A stretch of DNA of 64,000 nt from Bryobacteraceae bacterium (lineage in GTDB: Bacteria > Acidobacteriota > Terriglobia > Bryobacterales > Bryobacteraceae): contig JANWVY010000006.1 in assembly GCA_025056455.1 (NCBI GenBank), forward strand, positions 124,001 to 188,000. The letters run 5' to 3'. The notes beneath the pieces are model-generated. The model made no database searches. It saw only the letters and a list, made by a program, of their open reading frames with translations, and was not told the origin of the DNA. Below, one piece after another: positions 39,225-47,361 of this stretch. The position numbers and the translations under genes were made by a program. Positions within the stretch are counted from its first letter, which is position 1, and the number at the start of each line of letters is the position of its first letter.

Positions 39225-41639
39225 TCAAGGCCGGCCTTCCATGAAGGTCCAAGCACCCCAGTAGTAAGCGGCGCGGAAGGGCGTGTTGCTGCGAAGCAGG
39301 TCCAAGCGCGCCTGGCGCAGGGCTTCTGGGGCGGGCATTCCTTGGCGGATGAAACGGTACATGGTGGTGTGGAGGTGCAGGGAGGCGGAGTCCTGGATTT
39401 CCCACAAGCCGGCGGTAACACCTTCAGCGCCAGCCCGTAGAAAAGCCCAGCCTAAGCCGATGAGACCTGTGCCGCGGTAAGCGCGGACGCCGGCGCTGTG
39501 GCAGACTCCCAGCGTCACGAGGCGGGCGCGCAGCTTCTGGCGGACGATCTGGCGTGCGGTCAAACGGTAGTCGCCTTGCCCGGGCGAGAGGATGAGGGCA
39601 GAGTCTAGGGGGGTCCGGTTGTTGGCCACTCCGTGGGTCGCAAAGTGGATGAAGTCGAACTGCTCAAGGCGGCTACCGAGTACGCCTTGAGGGGTGGCCT
39701 GGGCCTCAGCAAGCAGCACGACGTTTTGAGGACCCATCTCGTTGAGAATGCTTGCAAGTTCTTCTTTCACGCGCGGAAGGGGCGAAAAGCCGGAGAGAGC
39801 CAGGTTGGCGTTGCCCACCAGCAGAAGTTTGCCCGCTCGAGCGGGAAAGGGGGCTGAGGCCTCGAGTAAAGACCGGAGCGAGGGGGCTCGAGACAGGGTG
39901 ACGTCTTCAATCCAAAAGCGTCCTGGGCGGGGATTCAGGGTGTCAAACGAGAGGCGGTGAAGCACGCCGTCGCCGATTACAATGACGCGAGTGTGGCTGC
40001 TCGCCAGGCGATCGCCCACGAGAATTTGAAAGAGTTTTTGTCCGGTGTCCGGATCTTGGCGAGAATTGCGCAGGTTGGCATGGTGCTTCTCAATCAGCTG
40101 GCCGAGCTCGTCTTCGCCGGGCAGTTCATCGTGACGGACGGCATCTGCGGTAACCACCCACACGGAAGACCGGCGAGGCGCCAGCCAGTAGATAAGAATG
40201 GCGGCGTTGCGTTTCGAGGCGATGGTCCGGGGATCGACGTTACGGAGGGGAACGGCACGGTCGCCGAACTTGCTCCAGCGCGCGGCGTCGGCCACCCAGA
40301 GCGCGTCTGTGATCCGTCCCGCATCGAGAAGAAACCGCGCGTAACGCCGAAATAAGCTCAGGTTGGTGGCTGGATAGGAGAGGCGGAAGTCCTCGCGGCG
40401 CAGGTCGCTGGCGCGAGCGAGGGCTTCGCGGAGACCGGTTTCAAACTGGACAGCGGCTTGCTCGCGGCGCTGCGTATGGGCTAGCAGTTCGGCGTAAGTT
40501 TCCCGGACTCCCAAGTGCTGGTAGAGCTCTGCCTCTTTCGATTGGAGCAGGGAGCGAATACGGTTTTCGGCCTCCGGGTATTGTTTTGCAGCTAAGAGGA
40601 TGTTGGCTGCAGTGACATCGCTAAAAAAGCGAGTCCGGTGGTCGGAAGGATGAAGCATTTCGATGGCGCGCTGGTGCGCTTGGGTGGCCTTTTCCAAGTC
40701 CCCGAGTGCGAGATGGAGCGTGGCGAGATTAATTAGACAGTCGGCGGCGTCGGTGCGGCGGTTGGAGCTTTCAATGAGGCGGTAGGCCTCGTGGTAAAAC
40801 TGGGCCGCCAACTGGTGCCGGTTGAGCAAGAAGGCAGCGACACCACAGTTGTTGCGCCATTTGATCTGATCTCCGATGTTGTCGGTGCGAAGGGCGAGGT
40901 CGGCGGCTTGCTGGCTGAGGGCGAGGGCGAATTCGGTTTCGCCGAGCATGAGGTAACACCAACCAAGATTCCCGAGCGTGCGGGCGCGATTTGGAATATC
41001 GTTGGACTGTTCGGCCGCCTCGAGGGCGCGCTCAAACCATTCCACGGCTTCGCCGCAGCGCTCCGCGCGCAGATGCTGAGTTCCCATCTGCCCGTAAACG
41101 GAGGTTTTCAGCTGCAGGTTCTGAGTTTTGTCGAGCAGCTGAAGGGCCTGGCGCAGATAGGAGGTTTCCTCGTCAAAATTCTGCCCTCGACCGCCGAGAT
41201 AGAGGAGGGCTCGGATTTCCAGTTCGTGCCACTGATGTTGACGGGCTTGTTGACGGGCTTGTTGCAGCATGGATATGCCGCTGGCAAAATCGCCCGTGCG
41301 TATCGCCGCCAAACCATGAAGAATGCGCCAGAGAGTGGCGATCTTCGGCTCGGCAGCCGGGGGAATAGCTTCAGAGAGGATCTTTTGCCATTCCCCGCGC
41401 CAAGATAGCACTTCCAGGTAGCGCGCTCGAGCCAGGGGTTTTTCCTCAGGTTTTGCCAGGGCTAAACAGGTTTCCGCCTGTTGCAACGCGGAGCGATAAT
41501 TTTTCAGTTTCCACTGCTCGACTTCGGCCAGGCACTGCGCGAGCGGAGAGGGACTGGGTGAGCGATGGCACCCAGCAAGCGCGAGGATCAAGAACAGAAA
41601 AGCACCGGAAACCGTTCTCTTAGGGATACCAAGTCCCAT
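39225..41639 (-). CDS. TPR-CHAT lipoprotein (caspase-like protease)
   Basis: An 804-residue protein with a lipobox (ILALAGC, lipidated Cys24), about 350 residues of tetratricopeptide-like helical repeats (for example AVEWFERALEAAEQSNDIPNRARTLGNLGWCYLMLGETEFALALSQQAADLAL), and a C-terminal CHAT domain. CHAT is a caspase/separase-like cysteine protease fold; the catalytic pair is His669 (FIHFATHG) and Cys713 (LVTLGVCHSAG), both intact, followed by GLIGLGWAFLRAGAEGVTAGLWEI. The lipobox implies export and membrane anchoring. It is the last gene of a minus-strand group with an ECF sigma factor, an anti-sigma factor and an unknown protein whose 3' end it overlaps by 20 bases. It may cleave something outside the cytoplasm, perhaps the anti-sigma factor (inference). 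Confidence 0.87.
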   Translation of the reverse strand: MGLGIPKRTVSGAFLFLILALAGCHRSPSPSPLAQCLAEVEQWKLKNYRSALQQAETCLALAKPEEKPLARARYLEVLSWRGEWQKILSEAIPPAAEPKIATLWRILHGLAAIRTGDFASGISMLQQARQQARQHQWHELEIRALLYLGGRGQNFDEETSYLRQALQLLDKTQNLQLKTSVYGQMGTQHLRAERCGEAVEWFERALEAAEQSNDIPNRARTLGNLGWCYLMLGETEFALALSQQAADLALRTDNIGDQIKWRNNCGVAAFLLNRHQLAAQFYHEAYRLIESSNRRTDAADCLINLATLHLALGDLEKATQAHQRAIEMLHPSDHRTRFFSDVTAANILLAAKQYPEAENRIRSLLQSKEAELYQHLGVRETYAELLAHTQRREQAAVQFETGLREALARASDLRREDFRLSYPATNLSLFRRYARFLLDAGRITDALWVADAARWSKFGDRAVPLRNVDPRTIASKRNAAILIYWLAPRRSSVWVVTADAVRHDELPGEDELGQLIEKHHANLRNSRQDPDTGQKLFQILVGDRLASSHTRVIVIGDGVLHRLSFDTLNPRPGRFWIEDVTLSRAPSLRSLLEASAPFPARAGKLLLVGNANLALSGFSPLPRVKEELASILNEMGPQNVVLLAEAQATPQGVLGSRLEQFDFIHFATHGVANNRTPLDSALILSPGQGDYRLTARQIVRQKLRARLVTLGVCHSAGVRAYRGTGLIGLGWAFLRAGAEGVTAGLWEIQDSASLHLHTTMYRFIRQGMPAPEALRQARLDLLRSNTPFRAAYYWGAWTFMEGRP

Positions 41640-42453
41640 TGCCGGCTACGCCCCCAGCGGCAAACTCGCCCTCATTTGGGCTTCCGAGTTCGAAGCGTAG
41701 CATATTCAAGCGGCGGGAACGGTTTTCGACGATTATTTCCGCCAGGTAAATTTTGCCAAAGTCTGGGATGCGGATGGCGAAGCCTTCGGTGTAGCCGCCG
41801 CGCACGTGAATGGGGTGCTTGAGGAGTGTAGCGGCGATTGCGCCCCCGCGCTCGGGAATTTCCTCGTCGCTGAACTTCCGGGTCCATTCCGGGTCAGCTC
41901 GATCGAGCAGCGGGCAGTTCTTAAGGTGATCTTTCCAGCCACAGATCGCGTTCAACTCGCTTCGGGCTGAAGGATCATCGTGATAACGCTGACGCAGGGC
42001 GCTTTGAGTGGGGCAGTCTTTCCAAAAATCTAGATTCAAATCAGCGTCAATGGCCTGGCCGTTGATGCGGAGTTCCTCGAAGTGGGTTCCAGAAAAGGAA
42101 AACTCGTGTTCTGAAGACGGAACTGGGTTCCTGTTATCAGTGCGAATTTTGGTTGACAGCTGGGCCACCACGCGTTTTGCGGAAACCACTTCTTGAAGGC
42201 GAAAATCCTCAAGGACGGCGGTAGCCTGGGCGTTGTAGACAGGGACCGCTCCCCGGTTGTCCACGCTGCCGGAAACTTGAGTGTAAGCGCGCTGAAACGA
42301 GAGAATCCCGTTCAGTTGAAAAGGGCCACTCTCCGAGGACTGGAACCCGCCTACCCAAGAAAGACTGCTCGCAGCAGGGACGTTGATCACCTGCTGGAAG
42401 GGACGCCGCAAAAATCCCCCCAGTGCGTAGGCATTGGCTGTATAGACGTACAT
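41620..42453 (-). CDS. Hypothetical protein between anti-sigma and TPR-CHAT genes
   Basis: A 277-residue protein of no family I recognise. The N-terminus MYVYTANAYALGGFLRRPFQQVINVP has no clear signal peptide. The first half is rich in beta-strand residues (PFQLNGILSFQRAYTQVSGSVDNRGAVPVYNAQATAVLEDFRL), the middle has three Cys in a hydrophilic region (DFWKDCPTQSALRQRYHDD, AICGWKDHLKNCPLLDRADPEW) and the C-terminal part again looks beta-rich (IRIPDFGKIYLAEIIVENRSRRLNMLRFELG). Gene order and the 20-base overlap with the TPR-CHAT gene make it a likely partner or substrate of that protease. The start could be later. Confidence 0.75.
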   Translation of the reverse strand: MYVYTANAYALGGFLRRPFQQVINVPAASSLSWVGGFQSSESGPFQLNGILSFQRAYTQVSGSVDNRGAVPVYNAQATAVLEDFRLQEVVSAKRVVAQLSTKIRTDNRNPVPSSEHEFSFSGTHFEELRINGQAIDADLNLDFWKDCPTQSALRQRYHDDPSARSELNAICGWKDHLKNCPLLDRADPEWTRKFSDEEIPERGGAIAATLLKHPIHVRGGYTEGFAIRIPDFGKIYLAEIIVENRSRRLNMLRFELGSPNEGEFAAGGVAGNGTWYP

Positions 42454-42485
42454 GAGTCCTTCTCCATGACCGTGGCGGTTCCAGA

Positions 42486-43181
42486 CTATTCGACACGGAA
42501 CGCGCCTTGCTGCAGTAGTTGCGCGCTACCTCCGATGGCCCGGCCGAAGACGCGAATCTGATAATTCCCTGGCTTGAGGCTGCCTTTTGGCAAGACCAGG
42601 GGGACCGATTGCTCCACACGATCGGCAGGTACCGAGAGTGGGGGTGGGTTCGAGGGTCCTGAGATCCGGATTTCGTAATCGAGCCAGCGCGCTTCATGAG
42701 GGATATCGAGGTTGAGAATGAGCGGCTCGCCATGGCGGAACACGACCGGTGCTGGTTCACCGGCACGTTCCCCCATTCGGAAGGGCACGAGATGAGTGGC
42801 GATGTAGGGAGAAGTAGCCCAGCGAAGGCTCTCTTTCAGACGGGGAAGCTCAACGAGGTTTTGATAGCCAAGCCCGCATAAGAGCAAGCCTGCGGCCCAG
42901 GCGGCCCAGTTCCGGCGCAAGCCTTCTACCCACCCCCAGGTTGGCCGGTGGCTGGATTTAGCGACTGGAACGGTTTTGGAAAGTGGCGTGGTGCGCTGGA
43001 TTGTTCCTTGTTGTTGAAGTTGTTGAATCGTTTCTCGAAGACGGTAACCTGCCACCATATCCGCGGCACAAACGGCGCACTCAAAAAAATGCTGTTCAAA
43101 CTCCTCCTTTTCGTGGTCCAAGAGTTCCCCGAGCAGATATTTTTCGGCCATGTTTGCGGCGACCGCTTGCTCGTGGGTCAT
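42486..43181 (-). CDS. Zinc-finger anti-sigma factor, membrane-bound
   Basis: A 231-residue bitopic protein. The cytoplasmic N-terminus carries the ZAS-type zinc motif H-x3-C-x2-C (His31, Cys35, Cys38 in HFFECAVCAADM), which clamps ECF sigma factors. One membrane helix (about 92-111, WAAWAAGLLLCGLGYQNLVEL) separates it from a periplasmic domain with an immunoglobulin-like look (PVVFRHGEPLILNLDIPHEARWLDYEIRISG, LPKGSLKPGNYQIRVFG). It lies 82 bases after the sigma gene. Release of the sigma factor would need the periplasmic domain to be cut or to change shape. Confidence 0.88.
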   Translation of the reverse strand: MTHEQAVAANMAEKYLLGELLDHEKEEFEQHFFECAVCAADMVAGYRLRETIQQLQQQGTIQRTTPLSKTVPVAKSSHRPTWGWVEGLRRNWAAWAAGLLLCGLGYQNLVELPRLKESLRWATSPYIATHLVPFRMGERAGEPAPVVFRHGEPLILNLDIPHEARWLDYEIRISGPSNPPPLSVPADRVEQSVPLVLPKGSLKPGNYQIRVFGRAIGGSAQLLQQGAFRVE

Positions 43182-43263
43182 ATCTTGGACCTCAACATCT
43201 TGTTCGCTGGAATAGTGTCCGATGGATACAAAACTGTTTCAAAAAGAGGCTGGTTTTGCGACG

Positions 43264-43968
43264 TCATGGGGCTGGCTCCCCTGCTTGGGTCTTCCGCGAA
43301 GTCGAGGTAGAGAGTTTTTGGCGAAAGGCCGCCTTGGCCCGGTGAACGAGAACACGAAGGTAGCCGCGGTCAATTCCAAACTGGTGGCAGATGGCATCCT
43401 TGTCGGCTTCCTCAAGGAAAACCGCCTCGAGGATGGCCCGTTCCCGGGTGGGGAGGGATTGGAGAATGGAGTGGACGATTTGCTGGCGTTCGCGGACCAG
43501 GAGGGCCTTTTCGGTATTTTCTGGAGCTGCAAGTTGATCTAAGTTTACGTCATCGACAGCGCTCCAGCGGGAGTCTCGCCGATAATATTCAGCCAGAACG
43601 TGATTACACACAGAGTTGACAAAGGAGCCGAGCTTGCGGCCATCCCGAATTCCTTCGGGTTTGCGGAGAGCAGCAAAGACACGTGCAAACGTTTCCTGGC
43701 GAATTTCGTCGATGACCAGCGGAGGGAGCATGCGAGCGCGCAGTTTGATTAGCAAGAGTGAGCCAAAGTACTGTATAAAATGCCGGATTGCCTCTTCGTC
43801 AGAAGAGGCTAGTTTGACCAGGTAGTCATCGGTGAGGGGCTCGAGGTTCAAGCCTACCAGTATATCTAGTAAATGTTCGATTGCTGCCTGTCTGGGATCA
43901 GCGTGGACGTAAGGCGCCAGCGCGGCGGAGGAGCTCCACCACTTTTTCTTTCGGAAGGGCTTCGACAC
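43264..43968 (-). CDS. ECF-family RNA polymerase sigma factor
   Basis: A 234-residue sigma-70 family factor. Region 2 includes DEEAIRHFIQYFGSLLLIKLRARMLPPLVIDEIRQETFARVFAALRK (promoter melting and core binding); region 4 includes HSILQSLPTRERAILEAVFLEEADKDAICHQFGIDRGYLRVLVHRAKAAFRQKL (-35 recognition HTH). It starts with GTG at 43968, GAGG 5 bases upstream, and its first 71 bases overlap the end of the P1 peptidase gene. A TTG at 43851 would give a shorter protein starting near region 2. The zinc-finger anti-sigma follows. Confidence 0.88.
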   Translation of the reverse strand: MSKPFRKKKWWSSSAALAPYVHADPRQAAIEHLLDILVGLNLEPLTDDYLVKLASSDEEAIRHFIQYFGSLLLIKLRARMLPPLVIDEIRQETFARVFAALRKPEGIRDGRKLGSFVNSVCNHVLAEYYRRDSRWSAVDDVNLDQLAAPENTEKALLVRERQQIVHSILQSLPTRERAILEAVFLEEADKDAICHQFGIDRGYLRVLVHRAKAAFRQKLSTSTSRKTQAGEPAP

Positions 43969-45025
43969 GCAGGCCTCGATACCCGGTCATGGTCTCGGCA
44001 AGAAACAGCGAGTTGTAGACGGCTTCCTCCGTTGCTTCCTTCACGGCCTGAAAAAGCGGAGACATAGCGTCGTTGGTGAGATATTCGCCGGTCAGGGTCT
44101 GGCGGCCGGGATTCATGGGGACGAGATTGCGGGTCGAGAAAGCCAGCGCGTACTCGCCGCTTCCGTTGCTGGCTGAGGATCCCGTGGCGGCAAGGCCAAG
44201 TAGCGACCTACCTGCCAGGCGCTTCAAGTTACGGGCATCCAAAGGGGCATCCGTTGCAATAACAACCATGCAGGAGCCTCCCGGCGCGGGTTCGGCAAAT
44301 TCCTTGAGATAGTAGCGGCCGAGCAGCCGGCCTACGGGGACCCCTTCCACCTGAAGGATGCCGCCGTAGTTGGTTTGTACGAGAACGCCAACGGTGTATC
44401 CGCCGAGCGATGCTGGCAACCGCCGGGAAGCAGTCCCGATTCCGCCCTTAAACCCGAAGCAGATGGTTCCAGTACCCGCACCCTGGTTGCCTTCGGCCAC
44501 CTCACGGGACGCTTGGGCGATGGCTTGGCGGACATGTTCCTTCGTCACGTGGCGACCGCGAATGTCGTTAAGGCGACCATCGTTGGTTTCCCCCACCACG
44601 GCGTTGACGGACAGGACTTGTTCGTTGCCGGGTTGTGAGAGCGTGTATTCGACAACTGCTGCAATGCCTTCCGCCACGCTGAGCGTGTTGGTGAGAATGA
44701 TTGGGGTTTCAAGGTTGCCTAGCTCTTCGACTTGGGTGCTGCCAGCGAGCTTGCCAAAGGCATTTCCAACGCAGATTCCTGCTGGGGCTTTCTGTTGAAA
44801 CAAGTTTCCGTCATGGGGCAGGATTGCGGTGACTCCCGTGCGGACAGAGTCACCTTGGATCAGGGTGACGTGACCAACCCGCACGCCCTCGACGTCAGTA
44901 ATGGCGTTGCGCTTGCCCGGAGACAAGACCCCGGGACAAATGCCGAAATCCCGGGCACGGCGTTTGGCTTGAGCCTGCATGGGCGCCACGGCGGTTAGAG
45001 TAGCAAGGGCGCGGCGGCGTGTCAT
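43898..45025 (-). CDS. P1-family peptidase (DmpA-like aminopeptidase)
   Basis: A 375-residue N-terminal-nucleophile-type hydrolase of the DmpA/BapA (MEROPS S58) family that acts on N-terminal amino acids, D-amino acid amides or beta-peptides. Visible blocks are DVEGVRVGHVTL, APAGICVGNAFGKLAGSTQVEELGNLETPIILTNTLSV, GAGTGTICFGFKGGIGTASR and the autocleavage/nucleophile site PGGSCMVVIATDAPLDARNLKRLA (Gly-Ser). The N-terminus MTRRRALATLTAVAPMQAQAKRR looks like a Tat or Sec leader. It overlaps the DUF1080 gene upstream by 4 bases and the sigma-factor gene downstream by 71 bases. Confidence 0.9.
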   Translation of the reverse strand: MTRRRALATLTAVAPMQAQAKRRARDFGICPGVLSPGKRNAITDVEGVRVGHVTLIQGDSVRTGVTAILPHDGNLFQQKAPAGICVGNAFGKLAGSTQVEELGNLETPIILTNTLSVAEGIAAVVEYTLSQPGNEQVLSVNAVVGETNDGRLNDIRGRHVTKEHVRQAIAQASREVAEGNQGAGTGTICFGFKGGIGTASRRLPASLGGYTVGVLVQTNYGGILQVEGVPVGRLLGRYYLKEFAEPAPGGSCMVVIATDAPLDARNLKRLAGRSLLGLAATGSSASNGSGEYALAFSTRNLVPMNPGRQTLTGEYLTNDAMSPLFQAVKEATEEAVYNSLFLAETMTGYRGLRVEALPKEKVVELLRRAGALRPR

Positions 45026-46926: not shown

Positions 46927-47361
46927 CTAGCTTTCATGCCGGCTCGTATCTCCAAGAATCTGAAACTCCTCCACGGGTTCACCGCCCAAGAGATGTTCTT
47001 GGATGATGCGTTCCAAAACGGCCGGGTTTGCCGAGTGATACCAGACGCCATCGGGATAAACCACAGCGATAGGCCCGTGTTCACACAGCCGGAGGCAGTT
47101 GGCTTTGGTACGGTAGAGGCAGTTGGCTTTGGTACGGTAAATGACGCGACTCCCCCGGGTCAGTCCGAGTTCAGAGAGCCTGCGCTTCAAATATTCCCAA
47201 GCTTCGAGGCCTTCCTGCTTCGAGCAGCAAGCTGGGCTGGTCTGGTCGGCGCACAAGAAAATGTGACGCTCGATCTTCGCCAGGCCGAGGTTGGCGGCGA
47301 CTTGATTCAGGTGGTCTTTTTCTTGGGGTGTCAAGACAGGCGGCTCGGTGTTCTGATCCAC
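46927..47361 (-). CDS. Thioredoxin-like [2Fe-2S] ferredoxin with internal duplication
   Basis: A 144-residue thioredoxin-fold [2Fe-2S] ferredoxin. Family blocks are [36 protein letters not shown] and [38 protein letters not shown]. Cluster ligands are expected at Cys37, Cys45 or 46, Cys89 and Cys93. Residues YRTKANCL occur twice in a row (75-82 and 83-90), giving an extra Cys81 right before the third ligand; relatives have this block once. The duplication is exact at DNA level and in frame. The protein may still fold, but ligand choice is uncertain. Confidence 0.88.
47092..47139 (+). repeat. Perfect 24-bp tandem duplication inside the ferredoxin gene
   Basis: Bases 47092-47115 and 47116-47139 are identical (unit begins GAGGCAGTTGGC and ends GGTACGGTA). 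The unit is 8 codons and keeps frame. No mismatch means it is recent or under gene conversion. Confidence 0.95.

What the first reader, a model, noticed from the sequence alone, without database searches (positions are those of the whole stretch)
39225..43968. ECF sigma / zinc-finger anti-sigma / unknown / TPR-CHAT lipoprotein cluster: a possible proteolytic sigma-release switch
Four minus-strand genes lie in order: an ECF sigma factor, a membrane anti-sigma with a periplasmic domain, an unknown beta-rich protein, and a TPR-CHAT protease with intact His669 and Cys713 and a lipobox at Cys24. Known systems link TPR-CHAT to sigma control: in type III-E CRISPR (Craspase) the TPR-CHAT protein Csx29 cleaves Csx30, which restrains a sigma factor. 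Here there is no CRISPR. The lipobox puts the protease outside the cytoplasm, next to the anti-sigma's periplasmic domain. A plausible model is that CHAT cuts either the anti-sigma or the unknown protein to release the sigma factor. The cluster membership is seen; the model is inference.
Basis: partly seen in the sequence, partly recalled or inferred. Interest (0 to 1): 0.72.

Follow-up and report, generated by a model that had tools for sequence, protein, structure and literature searches.

The report
CHAT protease and anti-sigma switch
A conserved set of four genes in soil bacteria pairs a gene switch (a sigma factor), the membrane protein thought to hold it back, a caspase-like protease that appears to sit outside the inner membrane and a mystery protein, which suggests a new kind of protease that turns genes on from the outside.

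Summary
Of 47 loci with the "unknown" gene, all in Acidobacteriota, TPR-CHAT follows it in 45, the zinc-finger anti-sigma is in the cluster in 44 and sigma in 34. In 7 genomes sigma lies elsewhere yet is kept; over 61 relatives sigma and unknown co-occur (20 both, 1+1 single, 39 neither).

CHAT keeps His669 and Cys713 wherever readable (43/43, 42/42) and mostly an export signal; by a crude hydropathy scan the unknown protein has none. It is a distant "choice-of-anchor P" relative. The anti-sigma has one membrane helix and a flexible periplasmic linker with a near-invariant Arg (37/40) before an Ig-like domain. Other CHAT/ECF operons of the family, without the unknown gene, share domain and Arg.

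Best explanation: extracytoplasmic CHAT makes the site-1 cut in the anti-sigma. This is inferred; no cleavage is shown. Cutting the unknown protein, as Csx29 cuts Csx30, is less likely because the two seem to be in different compartments. A new variant of protease-controlled ECF signalling, not a Craspase.

The parts
39225..41639 (-). TPR-CHAT lipoprotein, 804 aa (signal sequence plus lipobox C24; TPRs; CHAT 532-799 with H669/C713)
   Evidence: dyad conserved in homologues; N-termini
41620..42453 (-). 'Unknown' beta-rich protein, 277 aa: distant choice-of-anchor P relative without a recognisable signal peptide; overlaps the CHAT start by 20 nt
   Evidence: (model pLDDT 91.3)
42486..43181 (-). 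Membrane zinc-finger anti-sigma factor, 231 aa: helical HX3CX2C domain, long helix with the TM segment (83-123), flexible linker with Arg139, Ig/FnIII-like periplasmic domain (about 154-230)
43264..43851 (-).
43898..45025 (-). S58 (DmpA/P1-type) peptidase, upstream neighbour of sigma in this genus; probably not part of the switch
   Evidence: next to sigma in 6 genus-mates; not found in the other fetched loci tested

Best explanation
A membrane-spanning sigma-factor switch. Shown from sequence: the genes, their conserved grouping, the conserved protease dyad, the export signal on CHAT and the predicted topology of the anti-sigma. Inferred: at rest the anti-sigma's cytoplasmic zinc-finger domain holds the ECF sigma factor. 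An envelope signal, probably read by the TPRs, activates the membrane-anchored CHAT protease, which cuts the anti-sigma in the flexible periplasmic linker, perhaps at the near-invariant Arg139. A general intramembrane M50 (site-2) protease then finishes the job and frees sigma. The unknown protein is a CHAT partner or an output protein of unresolved role, most likely cytoplasmic.
For: (1) Order SIG-ASIG-UNK-CHAT in 34 of 47 loci; CHAT is the next profile-matched gene after UNK in 45, ASIG is in the cluster in 44. (2) In 7 genomes without sigma in the cluster its orthologue is encoded elsewhere, and profiles over 61 genomes match (20 both, 1 UNK only, 1 SIG only, 39 neither; Fisher 7e-14, not corrected for relatedness, sigma cut-off of 140 bits set after seeing the gap in scores). 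(3) Where sigma has left, ASIG stays with UNK-CHAT (6 genus-mates as ASIG-UNK-CHAT, 2 Acidobacteriaceae as UNK-CHAT-ASIG), which ties CHAT to the anti-sigma rather than to sigma. (4) H669 in 43 of 43 and C713 in 42 of 42 readable of 45 aligned sequences. (5) 42 of 45 CHAT rows hold a 13-residue stretch more hydrophobic than any of 44 UNK starts (CHAT scanned over 150 residues, UNK over 60); 27 of 45 CHAT rows match a lipobox pattern, several more by eye. (6) The linker with R139 is predicted flexible (pLDDT 66-70 for 121-150); R139 is kept in 37 of 40 where the median periplasmic column reaches 28%. (7) Other CHAT/ECF/anti-sigma operons of the family lack UNK but keep the periplasmic domain, the Arg and mostly an exported-looking CHAT. 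(8) M50 proteases are present in the genome, as in all 14 control genomes.
Against: No cleavage, binding or expression data. The Arg persists in at least two anti-sigmas with no CHAT in the fetched stretch (L179, L186), so it may be structural. The hits came from a profile that already contains it. Three of 41 type-1 anti-sigmas lack it (G034 first copy, G144, G316). Studied Craspases cut at non-conserved sites (passages of PMC11106740), so an invariant residue is not what that relative predicts. Five of 18 related ECF loci have no CHAT in the fetched stretch. The model leaves UNK, the most faithful CHAT neighbour, without a role. No common promoter motif was found.
Confidence: 0.5

Rival explanations
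1. CHAT and UNK are simply the output of the sigma factor (an autoregulated operon); the anti-sigma is cut by ordinary site-1 proteases and CHAT acts elsewhere in the envelope.
For: Sigma operons often carry their own targets (general knowledge); there is no substrate evidence; UNK has no place in the cleavage model; the unknown gene overlaps CHAT, as in a plain operon.
Against: When sigma is unlinked, the anti-sigma and not sigma stays with CHAT. Other CHAT/ECF operons share the anti-sigma periplasmic domain with CHAT but not UNK.
Confidence: 0.25
2. Csx29/Csx30-like logic: CHAT cuts the unknown protein, which would itself act on sigma or the anti-sigma, or be released as an effector.
For: UNK is the most faithful CHAT neighbour (followed by CHAT in 45 of 47 loci, often overlapping). 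Two loci have UNK-CHAT without ASIG (L092, L093), though L093 lies at a contig end. Csx29 cuts its neighbour Csx30 (PMC10028731, passages).
Against: CHAT has an export signal and UNK shows none in 44 sequences (hydropathy only), so they should not meet. The UNK profile matches no solved chain at E<=1. Other CHAT/ECF operons exist without UNK.
Confidence: 0.15
3. CHAT is a non-proteolytic TPR sensor that binds the anti-sigma's periplasmic domain and changes its hold on sigma by contact.
For: TPRs bind proteins (general knowledge); the anti-sigma's periplasmic domain is FnIII/Ig-like (weak Foldseek matches), a fold often used for binding.
Against: Both catalytic residues are present in every readable type-1 sequence, which a pure binder would not need.
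Confidence: 0.1

Closest known systems
Craspase / CASP-sigma (type III-E CRISPR: Csx29 TPR-CHAT, Csx30, CASP-sigma)
   Same: TPR-CHAT protease encoded beside an ECF-like sigma factor and a candidate inhibitor; proteolysis proposed to relieve inhibition (passages of PMC10028731).
   Different: Csx29 model score 17 against a cut-off of 300; CHAT has a signal sequence and lipobox; the inhibitor is a zinc-finger membrane anti-sigma; no CRISPR-like repeat array in window 30000-64000 (the rest was not scanned).
RseA/DegS/RseP-type regulated intramembrane proteolysis of anti-sigma factors
   Same: Single-pass membrane anti-sigma with cytoplasmic zinc-finger part and periplasmic part; site-1 then site-2 cut expected; M50 proteases present.
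   Different: The candidate site-1 protease is a CHAT protein. Site-1 proteases named in the 12 of 23 passages shown of review PMC10202637 are DegS, PrsW, SipS/SipT/SipP, Prc and, for a non-sigma substrate, PerP; that main text holds neither 'caspase' nor 'CHAT'.
ECF group ECF54 (CHAT, subtilase and carboxypeptidase proteins in the gene context)
   Same: CHAT conserved near an ECF sigma factor and proteolytic control proposed (passage of PMC8999054).
   Different: That proposal is for control without an anti-sigma; here a membrane anti-sigma is conserved. ECF group models were not available and the classification paper is not held.
Bacterial gasdermin / caspase-like protease pairs (recalled)
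   Same: Small beta-rich neighbour encoded with a CHAT or caspase-like protease.
   Different: UNK resembles choice-of-anchor P proteins; no Foldseek match with E<=0.001 to a solved structure; sigma and anti-sigma are present.
choice-of-anchor P family (NF040603)
   Same: Distant sequence similarity (window residues 35-138; 26 of 40 family members).
   Different: Window protein below cut-off; no recognisable signal peptide; sits in an ECF operon.

Membership tests
Type III-E Craspase (Csx29) | Csx29 family score over the curated cut-off | tested here: not met
   NF041237 17 bits against 300
Type III-E Craspase (Csx29) | CRISPR array and Cas7-11 beside it | tested here: not met
   No CRISPR-like repeat array in window 30000-64000; the seven proteins of the cluster and upstream scanned include no Cas protein. 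The rest of the window and the genome were not scanned for CRISPR.
Type III-E Craspase (Csx29) | Csx30 homologue as partner | tested here: inconclusive
   UNK profile: no solved chain at E<=1; fold search gave no clear match, which does not exclude one
Active CHAT protease | His-Cys dyad | tested here: met
   H669 43 of 43, C713 42 of 42 readable of 45 aligned
Active CHAT protease | Proteolytic activity | not testable with these tools
   Needs biochemistry
Zinc-binding membrane anti-sigma factor | HX3CX2C helical domain at the N-terminus | tested here: met
   39 of 40 rows hold H31, C35 and C38; the other is cut by a contig end; helical model; Pfam zf-HC2 below cut-off
Zinc-binding membrane anti-sigma factor | Single TM helix and periplasmic domain | tested here: met
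   Hydropathy and model, (no TM predictor was available)
Zinc-binding membrane anti-sigma factor | Binds and inhibits the sigma factor | not testable with these tools
   No complex prediction was available
Regulated intramembrane proteolysis | Site-1 cut in the periplasmic part | not testable with these tools
   Inferred only
Regulated intramembrane proteolysis | Site-2 (M50) protease in the genome | tested here: met
   7 PF02163 matches; also in all 14 controls, so not discriminating
ECF sigma factor | sigma70-ECF family score over cut-off | tested here: met
   TIGR02937 52.9 against 42.9
ECF54 | CHAT in context and no anti-sigma | tested here: not met
   CHAT is present but a membrane anti-sigma is conserved; group models not tested
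choice-of-anchor P | Score over cut-off | tested here: not met
   Window protein 18.9 against 27; 26 of 40 family members match at E<=0.01
choice-of-anchor P | Signal peptide / surface anchor (feature recalled) | tested here: not met
   No strongly hydrophobic start in 44 sequences (hydropathy only)
Bacterial gasdermin | Gasdermin fold | tested here: inconclusive
   No clear fold match for the UNK model; a family not listed is not excluded

The most novel reading that the evidence does not exclude
Extracytoplasmic TPR-CHAT (caspase/separase-clan) proteases are a new class of site-1 protease. They form multi-copy signalling modules in Acidobacteriota in which an exported CHAT cuts a dedicated membrane anti-sigma factor at a near-invariant linker Arg, a transmembrane counterpart of Craspase sigma release; the type studied here adds a signal-peptide-less choice-of-anchor-P-like protein as a near-obligate partner.
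Probability: 0.38. Interest if true: 0.85.

Novelty: new variant of a known kind. Interest (0 to 1): 0.66.

Why it matters
Site-1 proteases decide which outside signals reach ECF sigma factors, and those named in the review passages I saw do not include a caspase-like enzyme. A CHAT site-1 protease would extend CHAT biology from the cytoplasm (CRISPR) to envelope sensing, explain what some exported CHAT proteins of Acidobacteriota do, and give a single residue (R139) and a dyad (H669/C713) to test.

Tried and rejected
Gasdermin-like or Csx30-like identity for the unknown protein: a good model (pLDDT 91.3) gave no Foldseek match with E<=0.001 in PDB or BFVD, best VIA Z 5.0, to a beta-barrel. 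No gasdermin was among the 50 rows shown of 427 Foldseek matches or the 50 shown of 158 VIA matches; not excluded.

Common promoter motif upstream of sigma in 26 loci (2 near-duplicates dropped from 28 usable; the window, 2 loci whose start motif was not recognised and the unlinked sigmas were left out): no two-box pattern above shuffles, ECF-like motifs at chance.

Control for the Arg in CHAT-free anti-sigmas with the same domain: few exist. Of 17 extra loci taken from the hits, 12 had a CHAT within the fetched stretch (in 2 of them, L187 and L189, on the opposite strand), 1 only a weak, distant one (L176) and 4 none (L179, L181, L186, L192; L181 and L192 lie at contig ends). L179 and L186 lack CHAT and keep the Arg, so the control speaks against a strict CHAT-Arg link. 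The profile alignment A6 used 37 of the 58 domains printed and left out the three type-1 rows that lack the Arg (G034 first copy, G144, G316), so its 36 of 37 is biased; the fair counts are 37 of 40 in A3 and 38 of 41 type-1 rows (read by eye).

A second control, zf-HC2 proteins elsewhere in the own genome (17 matches), was only partly read: my pattern showed six of them, and apart from the second CHAT-linked one none of those shown had the periplasmic Ig-like domain by eye.

PADLOC gave no family for UNK, anti-sigma or sigma at E<=1, and only low-scoring ones for CHAT (best 24 bits, a TPR model). Papers: the listings of searches (capped for 86 and 88) showed no paper linking exported CHAT with membrane anti-sigma factors; I saw passages only of PMC8999054, PMC10028731, PMC10202637 and PMC11106740. 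Most subscription papers, including the ECF classification of 2021, are not held.
Full report
What is there. The window holds, on the minus strand and in this order, an ECF sigma factor, a membrane zinc-finger anti-sigma factor, a 277-residue protein and a TPR-CHAT lipoprotein. The sigma gene most likely starts at TTG 43851 (195 aa), because its homologues begin there and the GTG at 43968 lies inside the S58 peptidase gene. The unknown gene overlaps the CHAT start by 20 nt.

Is the cluster conserved? Yes, though patchily distributed. I searched 61 relatives with the unknown protein (20 with a match, own genome included), then 396 genomes drawn from the phylum with its profile (25 with a match, own genome included; only six candidates per genome were scored, so this is a lower bound). 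I fetched the surroundings and annotated them with profiles of the four families; two more loci came later. Of 47 loci in all (45, 2), CHAT is the next profile-matched gene after the unknown gene, on the same strand, in 45; gaps of 387 to 595 bases in three of them (L046, L092, L093) were not checked for other genes. The anti-sigma is in the cluster in 44, and the full order sigma, anti-sigma, unknown, CHAT holds in 34. Two pairs of these genomes look near-duplicate (G292/G388, G154/G223). Loci without sigma in the cluster: six genus-mates, two Acidobacteriaceae (G396, G215), G320 and G232a, which are cut by contig ends, G296 (unknown and CHAT only), G068 (unknown on the other strand) and G247, a secreted 718-residue choice-of-anchor P protein with no cluster.

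Is sigma really part of it? In seven genomes where sigma is not in the cluster, its orthologue is encoded elsewhere (G003, G006, G008, G009, G011, G215, G396). In the five genus-mates among them it still sits beside the S58 gene, as in the window, so the other three genes moved or sigma was left behind. Over the same 61 relatives, sigma (at least 140 bits; the next genome scores 121) and unknown occur together in 20 genomes, unknown alone in one (G004, 87% complete), sigma alone in one (G027, 62% complete) and neither in 39. Fisher's p is 7e-14 over all, 3e-8 within the window's family and 0.018 within the genus; these ignore relatedness, and the cut-off was set on the same data.

The parts. 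CHAT: H669 is present in 43 of 43 and C713 in 42 of 42 readable of 45 aligned sequences. In 42 of 45 rows its N-terminal part holds a stretch more hydrophobic than any of the 44 unknown-protein starts; G296, G396 and G215 are the exceptions, one of the 45 rows is a short fragment, and CHAT was scanned over 150 residues against 60 because many predicted starts are too far upstream. A lipobox pattern matches 27 of 45 rows, and several others show one by eye. Anti-sigma: the model (mean pLDDT 84.8) shows a helical N-domain, a disordered stretch, a long helix with the TM segment, a flexible linker at 124-152 and an Ig/FnIII-like domain; Foldseek's matches are weak (one at E<=0.001, a phage connector protein; fibronectin type III domains from E 0.0025). 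In that linker Arg139 is kept in 37 of 40, followed by Gly in 34 of 40, while the median column of the periplasmic part reaches 28%. Unknown protein: confident beta-rich model, no clear fold match, distant similarity to choice-of-anchor P (26 of 40 members), no Pfam match at E<=0.01, no strongly hydrophobic start in 44 sequences.

A wider theme. The genome's only other CHAT gene is also next to an ECF sigma and anti-sigma pair, in the order CHAT, sigma, anti-sigma, without the unknown gene (L027). Among 18 such non-type-1 loci, 13 hold CHAT in the same gene string, 12 of them CHAT first; five (L106, L122, L123, L124, L125) show none in the fetched stretch. A profile of the anti-sigma periplasmic domain led to 17 further loci, 12 of which have a CHAT in the fetched stretch. 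The 12 second-type anti-sigmas readable and the one of G001b all hold the linker Arg, and I read it by eye in 16 of the 17 loci (L192 is a doubtful domain), but that profile already contains it. Most CHAT proteins of these loci have exported-looking N-termini and an intact dyad. Exceptions: the G004 and G006 copies show no signal at the listed start, G001a is cut, L185 is partly masked; my patterns miss both residues in G035, the Cys in G019 and the His in L190.

How it most likely works. An exported CHAT and a membrane anti-sigma with a periplasmic part share a compartment; CHAT and the unknown protein seemingly do not. When sigma leaves the cluster, the anti-sigma stays with CHAT. Together these favour the anti-sigma as the CHAT target: a site-1 cut in the linker, then a site-2 M50 protease (present), then release of sigma. 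The cut, its place and the signal are inferred. Separase's preference for Arg is recalled; against it, Craspases cut non-conserved sites (passages of PMC11106740).

Against what is known. The logic recalls Craspase (passages of PMC10028731), but this is not a member: Csx29 score 17 against 300, and CHAT is exported. It recalls RseA/DegS/RseP, with a CHAT protein in the DegS place. CHAT near ECF54 sigma factors has been noted, with control without an anti-sigma proposed (passage of PMC8999054). In the listings of the held library I found no paper on exported CHAT with membrane anti-sigma factors.

Verdict. A new variant of a known kind.

Noticed in passing
L027:4665-8797 (own genome, contig 22): Second CHAT/ECF/anti-sigma operon without the unknown gene, in the order CHAT, sigma, anti-sigma; the same type recurs in the window's family (12 of 18 loci).
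   Followed up: yes
L028, L177, L183, L187, L189, L191 (genome G002): One genome carries six loci with a CHAT gene near an anti-sigma of this periplasmic type (in L187 and L189 on the opposite strand), suggesting a multiplied signalling family.
   Followed up: partly
L124:4323-4838 and L125 (genomes G032, G037): Related sigma genes sit beside a small protein that matches the anti-sigma profile weakly; in L124 it carries a STAS domain and L125 looks alike by eye.
   Followed up: no
window 43898-45025 and L028, L098, L099, L100, L101, L104: S58 peptidase gene directly upstream of sigma in the genus, also where sigma is unlinked from the rest.
   Followed up: partly
L046 (genome G014): Two unknown-like ORFs between anti-sigma and CHAT, possibly a duplication.
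   Followed up: no
L096:4296-6449: 718-residue choice-of-anchor P protein with a hydrophobic start and two matched stretches, found with the unknown protein's profile.
   Followed up: partly
window 47092-47139: Exact 24-nt tandem duplication inside ORF 46927-47361.
   Followed up: no
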